The notes below the pieces were generated by a model. That model had not been told where the DNA came from and did not search any database. It saw nothing but the letters and a program-made list of their open reading frames with translations. Positions 45,154 to 53,812 of a stretch of 57,281 bases of DNA are shown here, piece after piece. The position numbers and the translations under genes are program-made. The DNA lies in the NCBI GenBank assembly GCA_021768625.1, contig JAETUM010000012.1, positions 1 through 57,281 of the forward strand. Direction: 5' to 3'. The stretch's first letter is position 1. Each line of letters starts with the position of its first letter. Origin of the DNA: Candidatus Stoquefichus sp. Its GTDB lineage: Bacteria; Bacillota_I; Bacilli_A; Erysipelotrichales; Coprobacillaceae.

Positions 45154-45265
45154 AAAATAACACCTCCTATATTAGTATATGGATAAAGTGAAGGATTGTG
45201 ATATTTTATTTGTTTTGCAAGTGAAAAGACAATATTTTATAATAGAGAATAAGGAGGATAAGAGA

Positions 45266-46618
45266 ATGTTTAAGAAAATCATATGTATCTTATTAGTGAT
45301 ATTTATAGTAGGGTGTCATCATCAATCATCAAATGATAAACAACAGTCTCAATTAAAAGAAGAAACAATACAGGATAACCAATCTAAAAAGTTATATTTG
45401 AAAGGGACTCAAATAGTAGATAAACAAGGGAATAATGTGCAGCTTAAAGGTCTTTCAACACATGGATTATCATGGTTTCCAGAATATGTAACGAAAGAAA
45501 CATTTCAAAGTTTAAAAGAAGATTTTCAAATTAATACAATTCGTTTAGCAATGTATACTGAAGAATATAATGGATATTGTAGTGGAGATGAAAAGAATAG
45601 AGAAGAATTAAAACAATTAATTGATAGAGGGGTACAATATGCTAAAGAATTAGATATGTATGTTATTATAGATTGGCATATTTTAAGTGATGGAAATCCT
45701 CTTAAAAATATAGAAGAATCTAAAAAGTTTTTTGATGAAATGGCTCAAAAGTATAAAGATGAAGAACATATACTCTATGAAATATGTAACGAGCCTAATC
45801 AAACATCATGGCAAGAAATAGAAACATACGCCAAAGAGATTATTCCTATTATTAGAAAATATAATAAAGATGCTCTTATAATTGTTGGAACACCTAATTG
45901 GTCACAAGAAGTAGACACAATAACAAAATTAGATGATCAAAATATATTATATGCTTTACATTTTTATGCTGATACACATAAAGAAGATTTACGTCTTAAA
46001 TTTAAAACAGCTTTAGATAAAGGAATACCAATTTTTGTCAGTGAATTTGGAATATGTGATGCAAGTGGAAATGGAAGTATTAATAAAGAAGAAGCAACAA
46101 AGTGGTTGAATTTATTGGATGAGAATCATGTGAGTTATGTAGCTTGGAATATATCACATAAAAGTGAAACAAGTGCTATTTTTAATTCACAAGTTAATAA
46201 AACAAGTGGTTTTTTAGATGATGATTATTCTGAATCTGGAAAGTGGTTAAAGGATTATTTTACACATAATGAAGTATCTTCTGATAAAAAGAATGAAAGT
46301 TTGAATAATGGAGATATAGAAATTATTGTAAATAAAGAAAACTCATGGCAAGAGAATCAAAAGAACATGGCACAATGGGTTGTTTCTATTGATAATCACA
46401 AAGAGACAATATCTGATTGGACGATTCAGATAACATTTGATAATCCTTTTGAAGTTTCACAATATTGGAATTTTGAATATCAGATTGATGGCAATACATT
46501 AATTATGAAACCAACTGATTATAATCAAGAAATTAAAATAAATGAAACAATTGGTCAGTTAGGTATGATTTTAAAGAGTGATAATGAATTAAAGGTAAAA
46601 AGTGCCATTATAAAATAG
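45266..46618 (+). CDS. GH5 endoglucanase-like lipoprotein with C-terminal cellulose-binding-like domain
   Basis: 450 residues from ATG 45,266 (AAGGAGGATAAGAG before it). The lipobox IFIVGC (Cys at about 14) predicts a lipid anchor on the outer face. The GH5 barrel (about 50-340) has LKGLSTHGLSWFP, the acid/base Glu in EICNEPNQ (about 176) and the nucleophile Glu in FVSEFGICD (about 259), closest to bacterial GH5_2 cellulases. Residues about 360-450 resemble a CBM2-type beta-sandwich. It should cut beta-1,4-glucans. It interrupts the otherwise conserved order ispH-yqfQ-cshB-nfo, suggesting later insertion. Confidence 0.9.
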   Translation: MFKKIICILLVIFIVGCHHQSSNDKQQSQLKEETIQDNQSKKLYLKGTQIVDKQGNNVQLKGLSTHGLSWFPEYVTKETFQSLKEDFQINTIRLAMYTEEYNGYCSGDEKNREELKQLIDRGVQYAKELDMYVIIDWHILSDGNPLKNIEESKKFFDEMAQKYKDEEHILYEICNEPNQTSWQEIETYAKEIIPIIRKYNKDALIIVGTPNWSQEVDTITKLDDQNILYALHFYADTHKEDLRLKFKTALDKGIPIFVSEFGICDASGNGSINKEEATKWLNLLDENHVSYVAWNISHKSETSAIFNSQVNKTSGFLDDDYSESGKWLKDYFTHNEVSSDKKNESLNNGDIEIIVNKENSWQENQKNMAQWVVSIDNHKETISDWTIQITFDNPFEVSQYWNFEYQIDGNTLIMKPTDYNQEIKINETIGQLGMILKSDNELKVKSAIIK

Positions 46619-48049: not shown

Positions 48050-48913
48050 ATGTTAAAAATTGGTAGTCATGTATCAATGAATGGTAAAGAAATGATGTTA
48101 GGATCTGTAAAAGAGGCTCTTTCTTATGGAGCAACAACATTTATGTTTTATACTGGTGCTCCTCAAAATACAGCAAGAAAGCCAATTAGTCAATTACGAG
48201 TTGAAGAAGCAAAGGCGTTAATGGAAGAAAACAATATGAATATTGATGATATTGTTGTTCATGCACCTTATATCATTAATTTAGCAAATACTATTAAGCC
48301 AGAAACATTTGATTTAGCAGTTAGCTTTTTAAAACAAGAAATTGAAAGATGTGAAGCGATTGGTGCTTCAAGACTTGTTTTACATCCAGGTTCACATGTT
48401 AAAGCTGGGGATGAAGCTGGACTTGAACAAATTGTCAAAGGATTAAATATGGTTTTAAAACCTGATCAAAAAGTTAGAATTGCTCTTGAAACAATGGCAG
48501 GTAAGGGAAGTGAATTGGGCAGAACTTTTGATCAAATTCAATATATGATTAAAAACGTTGAATATAATGAACTTCTTGGTGTTTGTTTAGATACATGTCA
48601 CTTAAATGATGCAGGGTATGATTTATCTCAATTTGATGAGTTATTAGAAGAATTTGATGAAAAAATTGGTCTTGATCGTTTATTGGTTGTTCATGTTAAT
48701 GATTCTAAAAATGAAAGAGGAGCACATAAAGATCGTCATGAAAATATTGGATATGGTCATATTGGATTTGAAATTCTTAATAAGGTTGTTCATCATCCAA
48801 AATTAAAAGATGTTCCTAAAATATTAGAAACACCTTATATTGATGGTAAGGCTCCTTATAAAGAAGAAATTGAAATGTTTAAGAATCAAACTTTTAATAG
48901 TGGGCTGAAATAA
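48050..48913 (+). CDS. nfo: Endonuclease IV (AP endonuclease)
   Basis: 287 residues from ATG 48,050. Opens [19 protein letters not shown]; zinc ligands are visible in [63 protein letters not shown]. It cuts abasic sites in base-excision repair. Linked to cshB as in Bacillus. Its last 28 bases overlap the convergent small gene. Confidence 0.96.
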
Positions 48914-49140
48914 TGATTTAATAAAAATATAATTTTTTGACAAGTGTGTTCACTTGTCAATTTTTTTATATAGTTCTCTATAACAAATTGGTATTCATCA
49001 TTCACTATAGCATAAGAATTATTTTTAATCATTTGAAAAATCTGATGCTTTAAATGATCATCAATATCTATATCAAACTCATTTAAAAGTATTATAAATT
49101 CATTAATTTCCAGTTTAGATATACATTCGCGTTTGGTCAT
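48886..49140 (-). CDS. Small protein of unknown function
   Basis: 84 residues, preceded by AAAGGAGGAAGTCA, a strong ribosome site. The body (about 1-58) is helical and charged ([28 protein letters not shown]); the end ([19 protein letters not shown]) is encoded across the nfo terminator hairpin, so it may be read only when the hairpin fails. No family recognised. Confidence 0.6.
48937..48967. terminator. Terminator of cshB-nfo
   Basis: TTGACAAGTG / CACTTGTCAA with loop TGTT and seven T. A-rich sequence on the other side makes it usable from the minus strand too. Confidence 0.85.
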
Positions 49141-49184: not shown

Positions 49185-49206
49185 GAACTCTAATTATTTA
49201 GAGTTC
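49185..49206 (-). terminator. Terminator of the EIIB-ROK gene
   Basis: GAACTCTAA / TTAGAGTTC, loop of 4, followed on the minus strand by TATTTTCTTC. Nearly the same hairpin ends ispG at 50,703. Confidence 0.75.
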
Positions 49207-50617
49207 ATGATTTCTTATCAAAGTAATCAACACATAATTGAGTGACACCATCTAACATATAAGAACTAGCATCTTTAATGTAATAAAACTTTGGTAAAAA
49301 TTCTTCAGGAATAAAAGAATTTAATTTATTTTTAATCTCATCCATATTTGGAGTCATAGGAGAACATATTGCGACAGCTTCAGGCCCCATTGTACAAATA
49401 GTAGGTAAAAGGGCTTTGGTAACAACTTCTACCGCTCCTTGTTCTGTTAAAACAAGTTTATGCAGATTGTCAGAAAACTGCATACGTTTAATAAAATACT
49501 TCAATTCACCAGCAACACCATTTTTTCCTAGGATAAGCTTTTTGTTTGCGATAATACCTTGACCACCAACACCAAAACCAAACTGTTGTGAATGATATAC
49601 AATATTTTCATATTCAGGATGTTCTAATGAAAACCCAATAGCAGCAGCATTTGCATTATTACAAATAACAACATCAATATTATATTTCTTTTCAAATTCT
49701 TCTTTAATATCAAAGGCTTCTTCTTTATAAGTTAAATTTTTTAATTTATTATCATCACTTATAATACCAGGTGTTGCTATACCTATAATGTCAACATAAG
49801 AATACTTTAATAATATTGTGTCTATAATATCACATAAATCATAAATATTCATCGAAGGTTTAATAATAAGATTGCTGTCAATAACTTCACATTTCTCTTT
49901 TAAACGATAGAATATTTTGGCTTGTGCTTTATTTAATGAAATGACAATTGATAAAATACGTTTTGTATATTCAATACAATGAGAAGACTTTTCTGTTTTT
50001 TCTTCCTTTTTATTTGTATGGAAAGATTCTAGTTCATTTTGTATAAATTTAATTGTGGATAAAGCATCATATGAAGCAAAAACAGCTGTTGGAATTTGAA
50101 GAACCAGTTTTTCAGGTAAACTTTCTTTTAAACGATTAAGCATATATCCTATCTGAGGGGCAATTAAAACAACATCATATTGATCAACTTCTTCGTATAT
50201 ACTTAAATACGAAACAGCATTAAAATGATAATCTAATCCTAGCATTTCAACCATTGAGTTTAAATTTTCAGCAAACATCGATGTTGTAAGTCCAGCACTA
50301 CAAGATAATAAGACTTTTAATGTTTTTTCATTTTTTAAATTGATAAGTGTTTCTACCATTTCATCATATAACTGTTTGGCATGAGCTTCATCACTTAATT
50401 CAAAATGTAAGTAGAATTTAACAGAATCATCTTTTTTTGAAACAATAGAGAACTCAACGATAGTTCCTTCATCAATCTGAGTAAATTGAATTGATGCTTC
50501 CCCATATTCTGTTAATAATTTAATGTTATCATCATTTTCTAATTTTATGTCATAATCATCTCCATTATGCTCCAATACCCATGCTTTAAAATCAAAAACA
50601 TTATTTTCTTCACTCAT
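49205..50617 (-). CDS. Fusion of a PTS EIIB (cellobiose/lactose-type) domain with a ROK domain
   Basis: 470 residues in three parts. Residues 1-95 are a beta-rich domain of unknown type. About 98-195 is a Lac/Cel-type EIIB: phospho-Cys106 in VLLSCSAGLTTSMFAENL, then DVVLIAPQIGYML. About 215-470 is a ROK fold (VDIIGIATPGIIS, GVGGQGIIANKKLILGKNG). In ROK kinases the catalytic Asp lies in NDxNAAA; here it reads NNANAAA (Asn321), and the zinc motif CxCGxxGC is absent, so it should not phosphorylate sugar. There is no HTH. It may sense both a sugar and the PTS phosphorylation state. No PTS permease lies nearby. AAAGGAGGTTATATA precedes the ATG. Confidence 0.82.
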   Translation of the reverse strand: MSEENNVFDFKAWVLEHNGDDYDIKLENDDNIKLLTEYGEASIQFTQIDEGTIVEFSIVSKKDDSVKFYLHFELSDEAHAKQLYDEMVETLINLKNEKTLKVLLSCSAGLTTSMFAENLNSMVEMLGLDYHFNAVSYLSIYEEVDQYDVVLIAPQIGYMLNRLKESLPEKLVLQIPTAVFASYDALSTIKFIQNELESFHTNKKEEKTEKSSHCIEYTKRILSIVISLNKAQAKIFYRLKEKCEVIDSNLIIKPSMNIYDLCDIIDTILLKYSYVDIIGIATPGIISDDNKLKNLTYKEEAFDIKEEFEKKYNIDVVICNNANAAAIGFSLEHPEYENIVYHSQQFGFGVGGQGIIANKKLILGKNGVAGELKYFIKRMQFSDNLHKLVLTEQGAVEVVTKALLPTICTMGPEAVAICSPMTPNMDEIKNKLNSFIPEEFLPKFYYIKDASSYMLDGVTQLCVDYFDKKS

Positions 50618-50702
50618 TATATAACCTCCTTTATTTATTATTCTAAAAAAATTATATCATAGTCTTTTCATTCTATAAAATAAAAAAGTAAACAAAGAAA
50701 AA

Positions 50703-50726
50703 GAACTCTAAAATGATTTAGAGTTC
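50703..50726 (-). terminator. Terminator of ispG
   Basis: GAACTCTAAA / TTTAGAGTTC, loop of 4, then TTTTTCTTTG on the minus strand. It overlaps the last ispG codons. Confidence 0.8.
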
Positions 50727-51775
50727 GTCATAAGAATAATTTCTTCCTTTAAAACATCAACAATATCTTCTTGTTTTACTTTTCTAATAATTTCTCCTTT
50801 TTTAATCAATAATCCCTCTTTTACTCCACCAGCAATAGCTATATCTGCATGTTTTGCTTCACCTGGACCATTGACAGCACATCCCATAACAGCCACAGTT
50901 ATATCTTTATGTATTGTGTTTAAAAAATCTTCTATTTCATGAACAATAGGGATAAGGTCATATTGTATTCTCCCACACGTCGGACATGAAATAAGCGTTG
51001 GAACATTTTGTATTAAGTTTAATTCTTTGAGTAAAATCTTAGCAACCTTAATTTCTTCTACAGGATCATCACTTAAAGAAACGCGAATTGTATTTCCAAT
51101 CCCTTGATATAATAAAGTTCCAATTCCTAAACTTGATTTAATTGTTCCACCAAGTGCAGTTCCTGCTTCAGTGACACCAATATGTAAAGGACAATCAAAT
51201 GTTTCACTTGCTAATTGATAAGCTTCTATAGTTAATAATGTATTTGATGATTTTAAAGATATGGCATAATCATGAAAATCAAGAGACTCTAAAATATCAA
51301 TATGTTTTTGAGCACTTTCAATCATCCCTTGAGCAGTAGGCTTACCATATTTCTCAAGAATATCTTTTTCAATAGAACCACTATTAACACCAATACGAAT
51401 AGGAATATGTTTCTCTTTACAAGCTTCAACAACAGCCTTTACCTTTTCAATAGAACCAATATTACCAGGATTAATTCTAATCTTATCAATTCCATTTTCA
51501 ATAGCAGTTAATGCTAATTTATAATCAAAATGTATATCAGCAACTATAGGAATATGAATGCTTTTTTTAATAGTAGAAATAGCTTTAGCATCTTCTTGGT
51601 CAAAAATAGCAACCCTAATTAATTCACATCCGGCTTCCTCTAATTGTAAAATTTGTTTAATAGTTTCTTCAGTATTTTTTGTTTTTGTATTACACATAGA
51701 TTGAATGATTACGTGATTATTACCACCTAATGTTAAATGACCTACTTGAAATGATCTTGTTTGATTTCTTAACAT
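50708..51775 (-). CDS. ispG: 4-Hydroxy-3-methylbut-2-en-1-yl diphosphate synthase (flavodoxin type)
   Basis: 355 residues. The TIM barrel opens [23 protein letters not shown]; the [4Fe-4S] ligands lie in [10 protein letters not shown] and [15 protein letters not shown]. Seventh enzyme of the MEP isoprenoid route; together with ispH it shows that this organism uses that route. AAAGAGAGGTTATTTT precedes the ATG. Confidence 0.96.
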
Positions 51776-52436: not shown

Positions 52437-53747
52437 TTAGTCAAATCTATAGTTAAAGCACACGACTGTTTTTGACTGGACGTTCCGTGTATTTGATCTG
52501 CCTGGGCGAATTGGCAGAATCTCTTTAGCTATAAGATGATCTACTGGTGGAGTCTCTCCACCTTTTTTATTTAAAAAATGTCTTAATATATGAAATGATC
52601 TTGTAAAATTAACTTGATATTCGTATTTTCTTTTATCTTTCTTTGGAATTTTGATTTCCTGAACGATACGCTGACAGAAATTATAAAGAATCATTCGTGC
52701 ATATATTTCCTGCTGGATGAGTTTTCTTTTCTTGGAATGCAATGCATTTAATCCAATCGCATATTTCAGTTCTCGAAATGAGTTCTCTATACCCCAACGC
52801 ATATGATATAAATCCTTAATATCATCTATAGAGAATTCTTCTCTGTCAAGATTAGTAATAATACATTCATATGTATCATCAGTTATTTTAAATCTTACGA
52901 CCCTGCAGTTAAATTCATGCCATGGATTTTCTTTTGACATAAAGTCAAATCGCATTTTTGAAGGTATGAACTTATAGATTTGAGGACATGCTTTGATCAT
53001 ATTTGTTTGTTTTAAAGTCAGCATTCTAAAAACATCAATATCAAATTCATCATCAGGAAAAGGGCCTAGAGATTGAGTGATACTTGATTTTGACTGAATA
53101 TCCTTCACTCTTATAAGATAATGATTTCTTGATTGAACAACATGCTCAAATCCATTGTATGATTCGTAATTTCTATCAGCCATGAAGATGACCTTCTTCC
53201 CTTTATATCTATCAACAAGCTGGCAAAAGGCATCATTTTCATTCTTTTTAGCTTCACCTTGTATAATCAGATCATCATAAGTACATTCCAACAAACCATA
53301 GCTTGCATTTAAGTGATAAGCAGAATAGGCTTTTGCATTAGTCCCATATCTTAACTCTGTAGTTTCCTCATCATATATCGTATTATCAATTGGTAATTCA
53401 CTTCCATCTATAGCTAGTAATCTATAACCCTTAAACAATTTATCCTTATGAGTTTTATCATTGAATCTGTCAAACAGTATTTTAAATGCATCTACTCTGA
53501 TTTTACTTCTAGCTTGTACAAATGCAGAAGCAGTTGGAGTATCTACAGAGTAATCATTGAGTTTGAGAAGTTCATCTTTTAAAGAACCAGTCTCCATACA
53601 AATGACATTCTTGATAGTCATTTCAAAGTTGAGATTTCTATTGCGTGTGAAATCAACTTCAGGATTCTCACAGAAAAGAGACGAGCATTCAGAAATTTTC
53701 TTGATGCAGTAATTCAAGACTTTTTTTAAATGTTTATAGTTATTCAT
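52437..53747 (-). CDS. IS4-family transposase
   Basis: 436 residues from ATG 53,747 (CGGAGGTACAAC before it; the frame opens at 53,792 inside the hairpin and has no ribosome site). DDE catalytic domain: Asp in LLAIDGSELPI, Asp in IFMADRNYES, and Glu in the YREK-like signature YHMRWGIENSFRELKYAIGL, diagnostic of IS4-group transposases. It cuts and pastes its own element. Full length, no frameshift, so the element may be active. Confidence 0.92.
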   Translation of the reverse strand: MNNYKHLKKVLNYCIKKISECSSLFCENPEVDFTRNRNLNFEMTIKNVICMETGSLKDELLKLNDYSVDTPTASAFVQARSKIRVDAFKILFDRFNDKTHKDKLFKGYRLLAIDGSELPIDNTIYDEETTELRYGTNAKAYSAYHLNASYGLLECTYDDLIIQGEAKKNENDAFCQLVDRYKGKKVIFMADRNYESYNGFEHVVQSRNHYLIRVKDIQSKSSITQSLGPFPDDEFDIDVFRMLTLKQTNMIKACPQIYKFIPSKMRFDFMSKENPWHEFNCRVVRFKITDDTYECIITNLDREEFSIDDIKDLYHMRWGIENSFRELKYAIGLNALHSKKRKLIQQEIYARMILYNFCQRIVQEIKIPKKDKRKYEYQVNFTRSFHILRHFLNKKGGETPPVDHLIAKEILPIRPGRSNTRNVQSKTVVCFNYRFD

Positions 53748-53779
53748 GTTGTACCTCCGACATATACCTATAAACAATT

Positions 53780-53812
53780 GGCCTATTATCAATCAATGAT
53801 TGATAATAGGCC
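53780..53812. repeat. 33-bp perfect hairpin upstream of the transposase start
   Basis: Two 16-bp arms (GGCCTATTATCAATCA and its complement) around a single A, 33 bases before the transposase ATG. In a read-through transcript from pepF it would form a very stable stem next to the ribosome site. Confidence 0.8.

What the first reader, a model, noticed from the sequence alone, without database searches (positions are those of the whole stretch)
49205..50617. EIIB-ROK fusion without kinase residues
A cellobiose-type EIIB with its phospho-Cys is joined to a ROK fold that lacks both the catalytic Asp and the zinc motif, with a new N-terminal domain and no HTH. This would link PTS phosphorylation to sugar sensing in a single protein. 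I know of no described function for this layout.
Basis: partly seen in the sequence, partly recalled or inferred. Interest (0 to 1): 0.75.

Follow-up and report, generated by a model that had tools for sequence, protein, structure and literature searches.

The report
PTS domain fused to sugar-sensor pseudokinase
A gut-type bacterium and its relatives carry a protein that joins a piece of the sugar-import phosphorylation machinery to a dead sugar-kinase-like sensor and a domain of unknown type; family trees suggest that it arose from a DNA-binding sugar regulator whose DNA-binding part was swapped for the phosphorylation domain, so it most likely reports the sugar-uptake state of the cell to a regulatory partner.

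Summary
The ORF at 49205-50617 (-), 470 aa, is an uncharacterised N-terminal domain (NTD, 1-97), a lactose/cellobiose-type EIIB (98-201, Cys106) and an HTH-less ROK fold (217-470) without an ATP site, zinc motif or catalytic Asp. The fusion is real and conserved: 30 of 36 other genomes of the family carry one, all three domains are under purifying selection, and 64 of 64 NTD-EIIB proteins keep the Cys motif. The Asp is missing mainly in this ortholog group; the ATP and zinc motifs are also missing in related HTH-bearing ROK regulators. And the parts do occur as two adjacent genes: NTD-EIIB followed by an HTH-ROK regulator. The fused ROKs split off as one group next to those paired regulators (100/100). 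So NTD-EIIB stands where an HTH stood. The best explanation is a PTS-phosphorylation-responsive, non-DNA-binding ROK regulator that acts on a partner protein: a covalent version of the Mlc/EIIB(Glc) switch, with MecR2 as precedent for an HTH-less ROK. Ligand, partner and the phosphorylation itself are untested. It is a lineage-restricted new variant of a known kind.

The parts
49205..50617 (-). Complete gene for the NTD-EIIB-ROK protein, 470 aa
50327..50617 (-). N-terminal domain, residues 1-97: helix, five-stranded sheet, long helix; no Pfam or NCBIfam match, only a weak PHROG match (E 0.023), no clear PDB match; His71 invariant
50015..50326 (-). EIIB domain of lactose/cellobiose type, residues 98-201
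   Evidence: (Z 17.6, rmsd 1.4 to 1iib; Z 18.1, rmsd 1.3 to 2wy2)
50300..50302 (-). Codon of Cys106, predicted phospho-acceptor; motif kept in 64 of 64 NTD-EIIB proteins
49970..50014 (-). Linker, residues 202-216, lower model confidence and loosely constrained; no room for an HTH
49208..49969 (-). ROK fold, residues 217-470, without DxGGT, GExGH His or zinc motif
49655..49657 (-). Codon of Asn321, at the position of the ROK catalytic Asp
49505..49507 (-). Codon of Glu371, the kept Glu of the ROK GExGH motif
50651..50679 (-). Promoter-like site TTTATA-17-TATAAT with a TG before the -10 box; candidate start of a one-gene transcript (promoter-like hits are not above chance in this region)
50625..50632 (-). 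Ribosome-binding site AAAGGAGG, 7 bases before the ATG
49185..49206 (-). Terminator-like hairpin at the end of the gene, found on both strands
50703..50726 (-). Terminator-like hairpin of the upstream gene (50708-51775, ispG by my reading), which separates it from this gene

Best explanation
It is a regulatory protein, not a kinase and not a transporter part. Shown here: EIIB keeps its phospho-Cys and predicted fold; ROK has lost ATP and zinc motifs and carries no HTH; the fused ROK is the closest relative of HTH-ROK regulators encoded next to a separate NTD-EIIB gene. Inferred: an EIIA of the lactose/cellobiose type phosphorylates Cys106 when PTS sugars are scarce, and the phosphate leaves when they are taken up. 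The phosphorylation state, together with a sugar-like ligand in the remnant ROK pocket, sets the conformation of the protein, which then binds or releases a regulatory partner (for example an HTH-ROK or RpiR-type regulator), as EIIB(Glc) does with Mlc and as HTH-less MecR2 does with MecI. The NTD is either the partner-binding or the dimerising piece.
For: Domains and Cys. Five loci with NTD-EIIB and HTH-ROK as neighbours 4 nt apart, abutting or overlapping, same order as in the fusion; HTH above the Pfam cut-off in L047 and L048. ROK tree: fused rows one side of a branch, 100/100, against the paired and other HTH-ROKs; also 99*; EIIB tree agrees, 95*, bar one ROK-less member. The fused gene of C134 sits in an EIIB-RbsD-acetyltransferase-fused-PHP cluster; an HTH-ROK in another genome sits with the same RbsD and acetyltransferase genes. 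Two EIIA(Lac) genes exist in this genome as possible donors. Purifying selection on all three domains. Precedents: Mlc is inactivated by dephosphorylated EIICB(Glc), not by a small molecule (PMC3901232; PDB 3bp8 appears); MecR2, a XylR homologue, works in a form without its HTH by binding MecI (PMC3406092; PDB 4ija, Z 18.3, rmsd 3.0 over 235 residues).
Against: No direct evidence of phosphorylation, ligand or partner. Within the ~1.5 kb of flank held for the window's orthologs there is no conserved neighbour; an fmt-like gene (my reading) follows in four, so genome context names no target for this copy. NTD-EIIB genes also occur without a ROK (L044, L096, L097, L099; L050 and L053, where neighbouring genes are kept but the ROK is missing), so the ROK is not needed for all NTD-EIIB functions. 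Rooting on ROK kinases is unstable, so HTH-first is parsimony plus the commonness of HTH-ROK, not a rooted tree result.
Confidence: 0.6

Rival explanations
1. Transport-side role: the EIIB works as a real EIIB for a lactose/cellobiose-type EIIC, and the ROK part is a sugar-binding brake or docking piece that tunes uptake rather than transcription.
For: EIIB fold and Cys kept; some fused genes lie behind free EIIB genes (L031, L036, L040).
Against: I recognised no lactose/cellobiose-type EIIC next to the fused genes whose flanks I read (PTS genes of other types lie near L054 and L057); the genome has free EIIBs for that job; closest ROK relatives carry an HTH.
Confidence: 0.17
2. The NTD-EIIB-ROK protein still binds DNA, with the NTD as an unusual DNA-binding domain in place of the HTH.
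For: NTD-EIIB occupies the position of the HTH; a strongly conserved domain with no known family.
Against: The model is helix-sheet-helix with no HTH; weak fold matches include PUR repeats, but at E >= 0.17, and Z values are background.
Confidence: 0.1
3. PTS-driven soluble sugar kinase: phospho-Cys106 hands its phosphate to a sugar held by the ROK pocket, replacing ATP.
For: ATP motif lost while Asn320, Glu371 and, in 26 of 44 fused proteins, Asp321 are kept.
Against: The window group has Asn321 in place of the catalytic base; the same ATP-site loss is present in HTH-ROK regulators without any EIIB.
Confidence: 0.06
4. A relic without function.
For: No conserved operon partner for this copy; one relative has a frameshifted paralogue (L045).
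Against: dN/dS 0.05-0.21 over the gene, low in each domain; orthologs in 15 other genomes of the family.
Confidence: 0.02

Closest known systems
Mlc with EIICB(Glc) of Escherichia coli (PDB 3bp8)
   Same: A ROK protein whose activity is set by the phosphorylation state of an EIIB domain instead of a small inducer (PMC3901232); same ROK fold (Z 15.2, rmsd 3.3 over 246 residues).
   Different: There the EIIB is of the glucose family, on a membrane transporter and a separate protein, and Mlc has an HTH; here a lactose/cellobiose-type EIIB is covalently joined and there is no HTH.
MecR2 of Staphylococcus aureus (PDB 4ija)
   Same: XylR-derived ROK regulator that can work without its HTH, by binding a repressor (PMC3406092); ROK fold Z 18.3.
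   Different: No EIIB and no NTD; its target MecI is an antibiotic-resistance repressor.
HTH-ROK regulators encoded beside NTD-EIIB genes (L047, L048, L049, L052, L055)
   Same: Same NTD, EIIB and ROK modules in the same gene order; nearest relatives of the fused ROK.
   Different: Two genes, ROK with HTH (degenerate in L052 and L055).
Cellobiose/chitobiose EIIB (1iib, 1h9c, 2wy2)
   Same: Fold and phospho-Cys loop.
   Different: Free transport subunits of about 105 aa without NTD or ROK.
PRD regulators with EIIB-like domains (LicR, MtlR, CelR, AtxA; own knowledge, and papers)
   Same: A regulator that carries an EIIB-like domain and is PTS-controlled.
   Different: They carry PRDs and HTHs; none is found here.

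Membership tests
ROK family (Pfam PF00480) | Sequence profile match above the curated cut-off | tested here: met
   50.4 bits against 22.9
ROK family (Pfam PF00480) | ROK fold | tested here: met
   Model residues 216-470, Z 18.7 to 2hoe, rmsd 2.9 over 244 residues
ROK sugar kinase | DxGGT phosphate motif and catalytic Asp | tested here: not met
   SLNKAQ region and Asn321; DxGGT found only in two of the three outgroup ROKs
ROK sugar kinase | CxCGxxGCxE zinc motif and GExGH His | tested here: not met
   No motif; Tyr374 instead of His
ROK transcriptional repressor (NagC/Mlc/XylR type) | N-terminal winged HTH | tested here: not met
   No HTH in Pfam, NCBIfam or in the model; the position is taken by NTD-EIIB
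PTS EIIB of lactose/cellobiose type (PF02302) | Profile above cut-off, fold, Cys loop | tested here: met
   41.4 bits against 23.6; Z 17.6 to 1iib, rmsd 1.4 over 103 residues; Cys106
PTS EIIB of lactose/cellobiose type (PF02302) | Accepts phosphate from EIIA on the Cys | not testable with these tools
   EIIA(Lac) genes are present in the genome; the reaction needs an assay
NCBIfam TIGR00853 transport EIIB | Score above the curated cut-off | tested here: not met
   61.4 bits against 110
Mlc-type switch | ROK protein bound by unphosphorylated EIIB | not testable with these tools
   Fused here; contact between EIIB and ROK not measured
MecR2-type anti-repressor | HTH-less ROK that binds a repressor | not testable with these tools
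   HTH-less is met; a partner is unknown
PRD-type PTS regulator | PRD domains | tested here: not met
   Pfam shows only PTS_IIB and ROK

The most novel reading that the evidence does not exclude
A one-protein PTS sensor that replaced DNA binding by an EIIB switch: ROK regulators first teamed with a neighbouring NTD-EIIB protein, then fused with it and lost the HTH, giving a family of cytosolic PTS-state reporters with a new partner-binding domain, several copies per genome.
Probability: 0.4. Interest if true: 0.7.

Novelty: new variant of a known kind. Interest (0 to 1): 0.58.

Why it matters
The Mlc/EIIB(Glc) pair is a rare known case of a PTS domain controlling a ROK regulator by its phosphorylation state. 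This family points to a second route to the same link, with another EIIB class and a covalent joint, and the split and fused forms show the steps. It gives a direct test of whether EIIB state controls ROK proteins more widely, and adds a conserved domain without a clear known relative. It may be a main layer of sugar sensing in one family of gut-type Bacillota (Erysipelotrichaceae relatives), where one genome can hold four fused copies.

Tried and rejected
Viral contigs: no relative. One scan of genome contigs gave only two loci, so the comparison rests on the genome search. Same-class and same-phylum samples (247 and 392 genomes): full-length fusions only in this family and two genera of one sister family. 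NTD fold search: no PDB match below E 0.17, best Z 7.6, which is background; viral library best E 4.8e-3, not convincing; so no fold name is claimed. ROK tree with kinase outgroup: outgroup placement unstable and fused monophyly neither rejected nor supported (p-AU 0.53); rebuilt without the outgroup. Promoter-like sites are no more frequent than in shuffles. Considered and rejected: sequencing artefact or chance ORF (conserved fusions in 30 of 36 genomes); pseudogene (dN/dS). RpiR genes near several NTD-EIIB loci are suggestive but none is near this copy, so they are not used as evidence for its target.

Full report
What is there. The ORF 49205-50617 (-) codes for 470 aa and stands alone: a terminator-like hairpin (50703-50726) closes the upstream gene, which I read as ispG, a promoter-like site and a ribosome-binding site precede the ORF, and a hairpin (49185-49206) follows it. 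Pfam finds PTS_IIB at 101-179 and ROK at 275-372, both above the curated scores, and nothing on residues 1-97. NCBIfam's transport EIIB model is matched only below its cut-off, which fits a diverged EIIB.

Structure. The AlphaFold2 model from 35 homologues (pLDDT 85.8) has three parts. Residues 99-201 superpose on cellobiose EIIB (1iib, Z 17.6, rmsd 1.4) and chitobiose EIIB (2wy2, Z 18.1, rmsd 1.3). Residues 214-470 superpose on ROK proteins: 2hoe Z 18.7, MecR2 4ija Z 18.3, Mlc/EIIB complex 3bp8 Z 15.2. The N-terminal domain, modelled alone (pLDDT 86.8), is a helix, five strands and a long helix, with no PDB match below E 0.17 and only background Z. It is not an HTH.

Residues. Cys106 is invariant in the 35 aligned fusions and its motif is kept in all 64 NTD-EIIB proteins. 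In the ROK part the DxGGT motif, the His of GExGH and the zinc motif are gone in the fused proteins and equally in the HTH-ROK regulators, so these losses are not tied to the fusion. Asn320 and Glu371 are nearly always kept. The catalytic Asp position is D in 26 of 44 fused proteins, in all 11 HTH-ROKs and all 5 paired ROKs, and N in 16 fused proteins; the N is typical of the window's ortholog group.

Distribution; 30 of 36 other genomes of the same family hold at least one full-length or contig-cut fusion (without: G001, G002, G003, G013, G020, G027). Orthologs at 57-71% identity occur in 15 of them. The window's genome has four fusions (C112, C134, C109, C53) plus free NTD-EIIB genes on C7. 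In samples of the class and phylum, full-length fusions appear only in this family and two genera of one sister family. Named records put relatives among Erysipelotrichaceae metagenome assemblies.

Split form. In five loci (L047, L048, L049, L052, L055) an NTD-EIIB gene is followed directly, 4 nt apart, abutting or overlapping, by a ROK gene whose first 60-80 residues hold, or once held, an HTH (HTH_24 above the Pfam cut-off in L047 and L048, below it in L049, degenerate in L052 and L055). Residue 217 of the fusion aligns with residue 60-80 of these ROKs. In the ROK tree without distant kinases the 45 fused rows (one of them frameshifted) form one side of a branch with support 100/100, HTH-ROKs another (99/95), with the paired ROKs between them (90/58). 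The EIIB tree agrees, with fused rows together at 95 apart from one ROK-less member, L056, inside them. The simplest reading is one fusion of neighbouring genes with loss of the HTH. The order of events is parsimony: with kinases as outgroup the root is unstable.

Selection. dN/dS for the pairs tried is 0.05-0.21 over the gene and 0.04-0.23 in NTD, EIIB and ROK taken apart; only the linker is loose. Synonymous sites are near saturation in the pairs with the window protein, so those ratios are rough. All three domains appear to matter.

Context. Within the flanks held (about 1.5 kb), the window's orthologs share no neighbour beyond an fmt-like gene in four. Paralogs do better: L040 has EIIB, RbsD-like, maltose-type acetyltransferase, the fusion, then a PHP protein, with an RpiR regulator on the other strand; L036 and L059 keep the PHP gene behind the fusion. 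An HTH-ROK in L091 sits with RbsD-like and acetyltransferase genes, and other HTH-ROKs lie beside PHP proteins (L094, L103 confirmed). Fused and HTH-bearing ROKs thus occur in alike gene company, which favours a regulatory role for the fusion.

Mechanism. A PTS EIIB passes phosphate from EIIA to sugar; its Cys is phosphorylated when sugar is scarce and free when sugar flows (established PTS knowledge). The genome has two lactose/cellobiose EIIA genes as possible donors. Mlc, a ROK repressor, is inactivated by the unphosphorylated EIICB(Glc) and by no small molecule (PMC3901232). MecR2, a relative of XylR with a ROK fold, works without an HTH by binding a repressor (PMC3406092). Put together: phosphorylation of Cys106 most likely toggles a partner-binding state of an HTH-less ROK. 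Shown: anatomy, conservation, kinship with HTH regulators. Inferred: phosphorylation, ligand, partner. Confidence 0.6.

Known or new. It belongs to ROK by profile and fold, but not to ROK kinases (motifs absent) and not to ROK repressors (no HTH). It carries a predicted EIIB fold but is not a transport EIIB by the NCBIfam cut-off. It works most like Mlc with EIIB(Glc), without being that system. I found no description of the layout in the library of papers; most subscription papers are not held there, so this is weak evidence of absence.

Noticed in passing
L045:7952-9360 (genome G034): Paralogue of the C134-type fusion is broken by a frameshift between EIIB and ROK while its RbsD, acetyltransferase, EIIB and PHP neighbours stay in place.
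   Followed up: partly
L050:8498-9115 and L053:8241-8855, compared with L047 and L049: In two genomes of one genus the NTD-EIIB gene and the downstream small ORF and ABC-F-like genes are kept but the HTH-ROK between them is missing, so NTD-EIIB persists without its ROK partner.
   Followed up: partly
L044:6778-7964, L096:3955-5128, L097:4274-5451, L099:4235-5406: Free NTD-EIIB genes overlap by a few bases with a maltose-type acetyltransferase gene in several genomes: a second recurrent NTD-EIIB pairing.
   Followed up: partly
L040, L042, L044, L048, L056, L058, L031: RpiR-type regulators lie within about 1.5 kb of many NTD-EIIB or fused genes; this genome has 22 RpiR-type HTH matches in 2.9 Mb, so this looks above chance.
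   Followed up: partly
L042:2519-2890 (own genome, contig C109): Truncated NTD-EIIB behind a normal EIIB and before an RpiR gene, probably a decayed copy of the arrangement in L056.
   Followed up: no
window 45179-46618: Secreted cellulase-like protein (reads like a GH5 endoglucanase with a C-terminal binding domain), about 2.6 kb from the EIIB-ROK gene; no family search was run.
   Followed up: no
window 52437-53792: Transposase-like ORF (IS4-type by reading) between the ispG-like gene and an oligopeptidase-like gene.
   Followed up: no
window 48886-49140: Small ORF just downstream matches DUF2624 (2.2e-05).
   Followed up: partly
L027:945-1373, L028:978-1406, L041:9057-9485, L046:11241-11669: A 142-aa P-loop/AAA-like protein is a recurrent neighbour of one fused paralogue clade.
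   Followed up: partly
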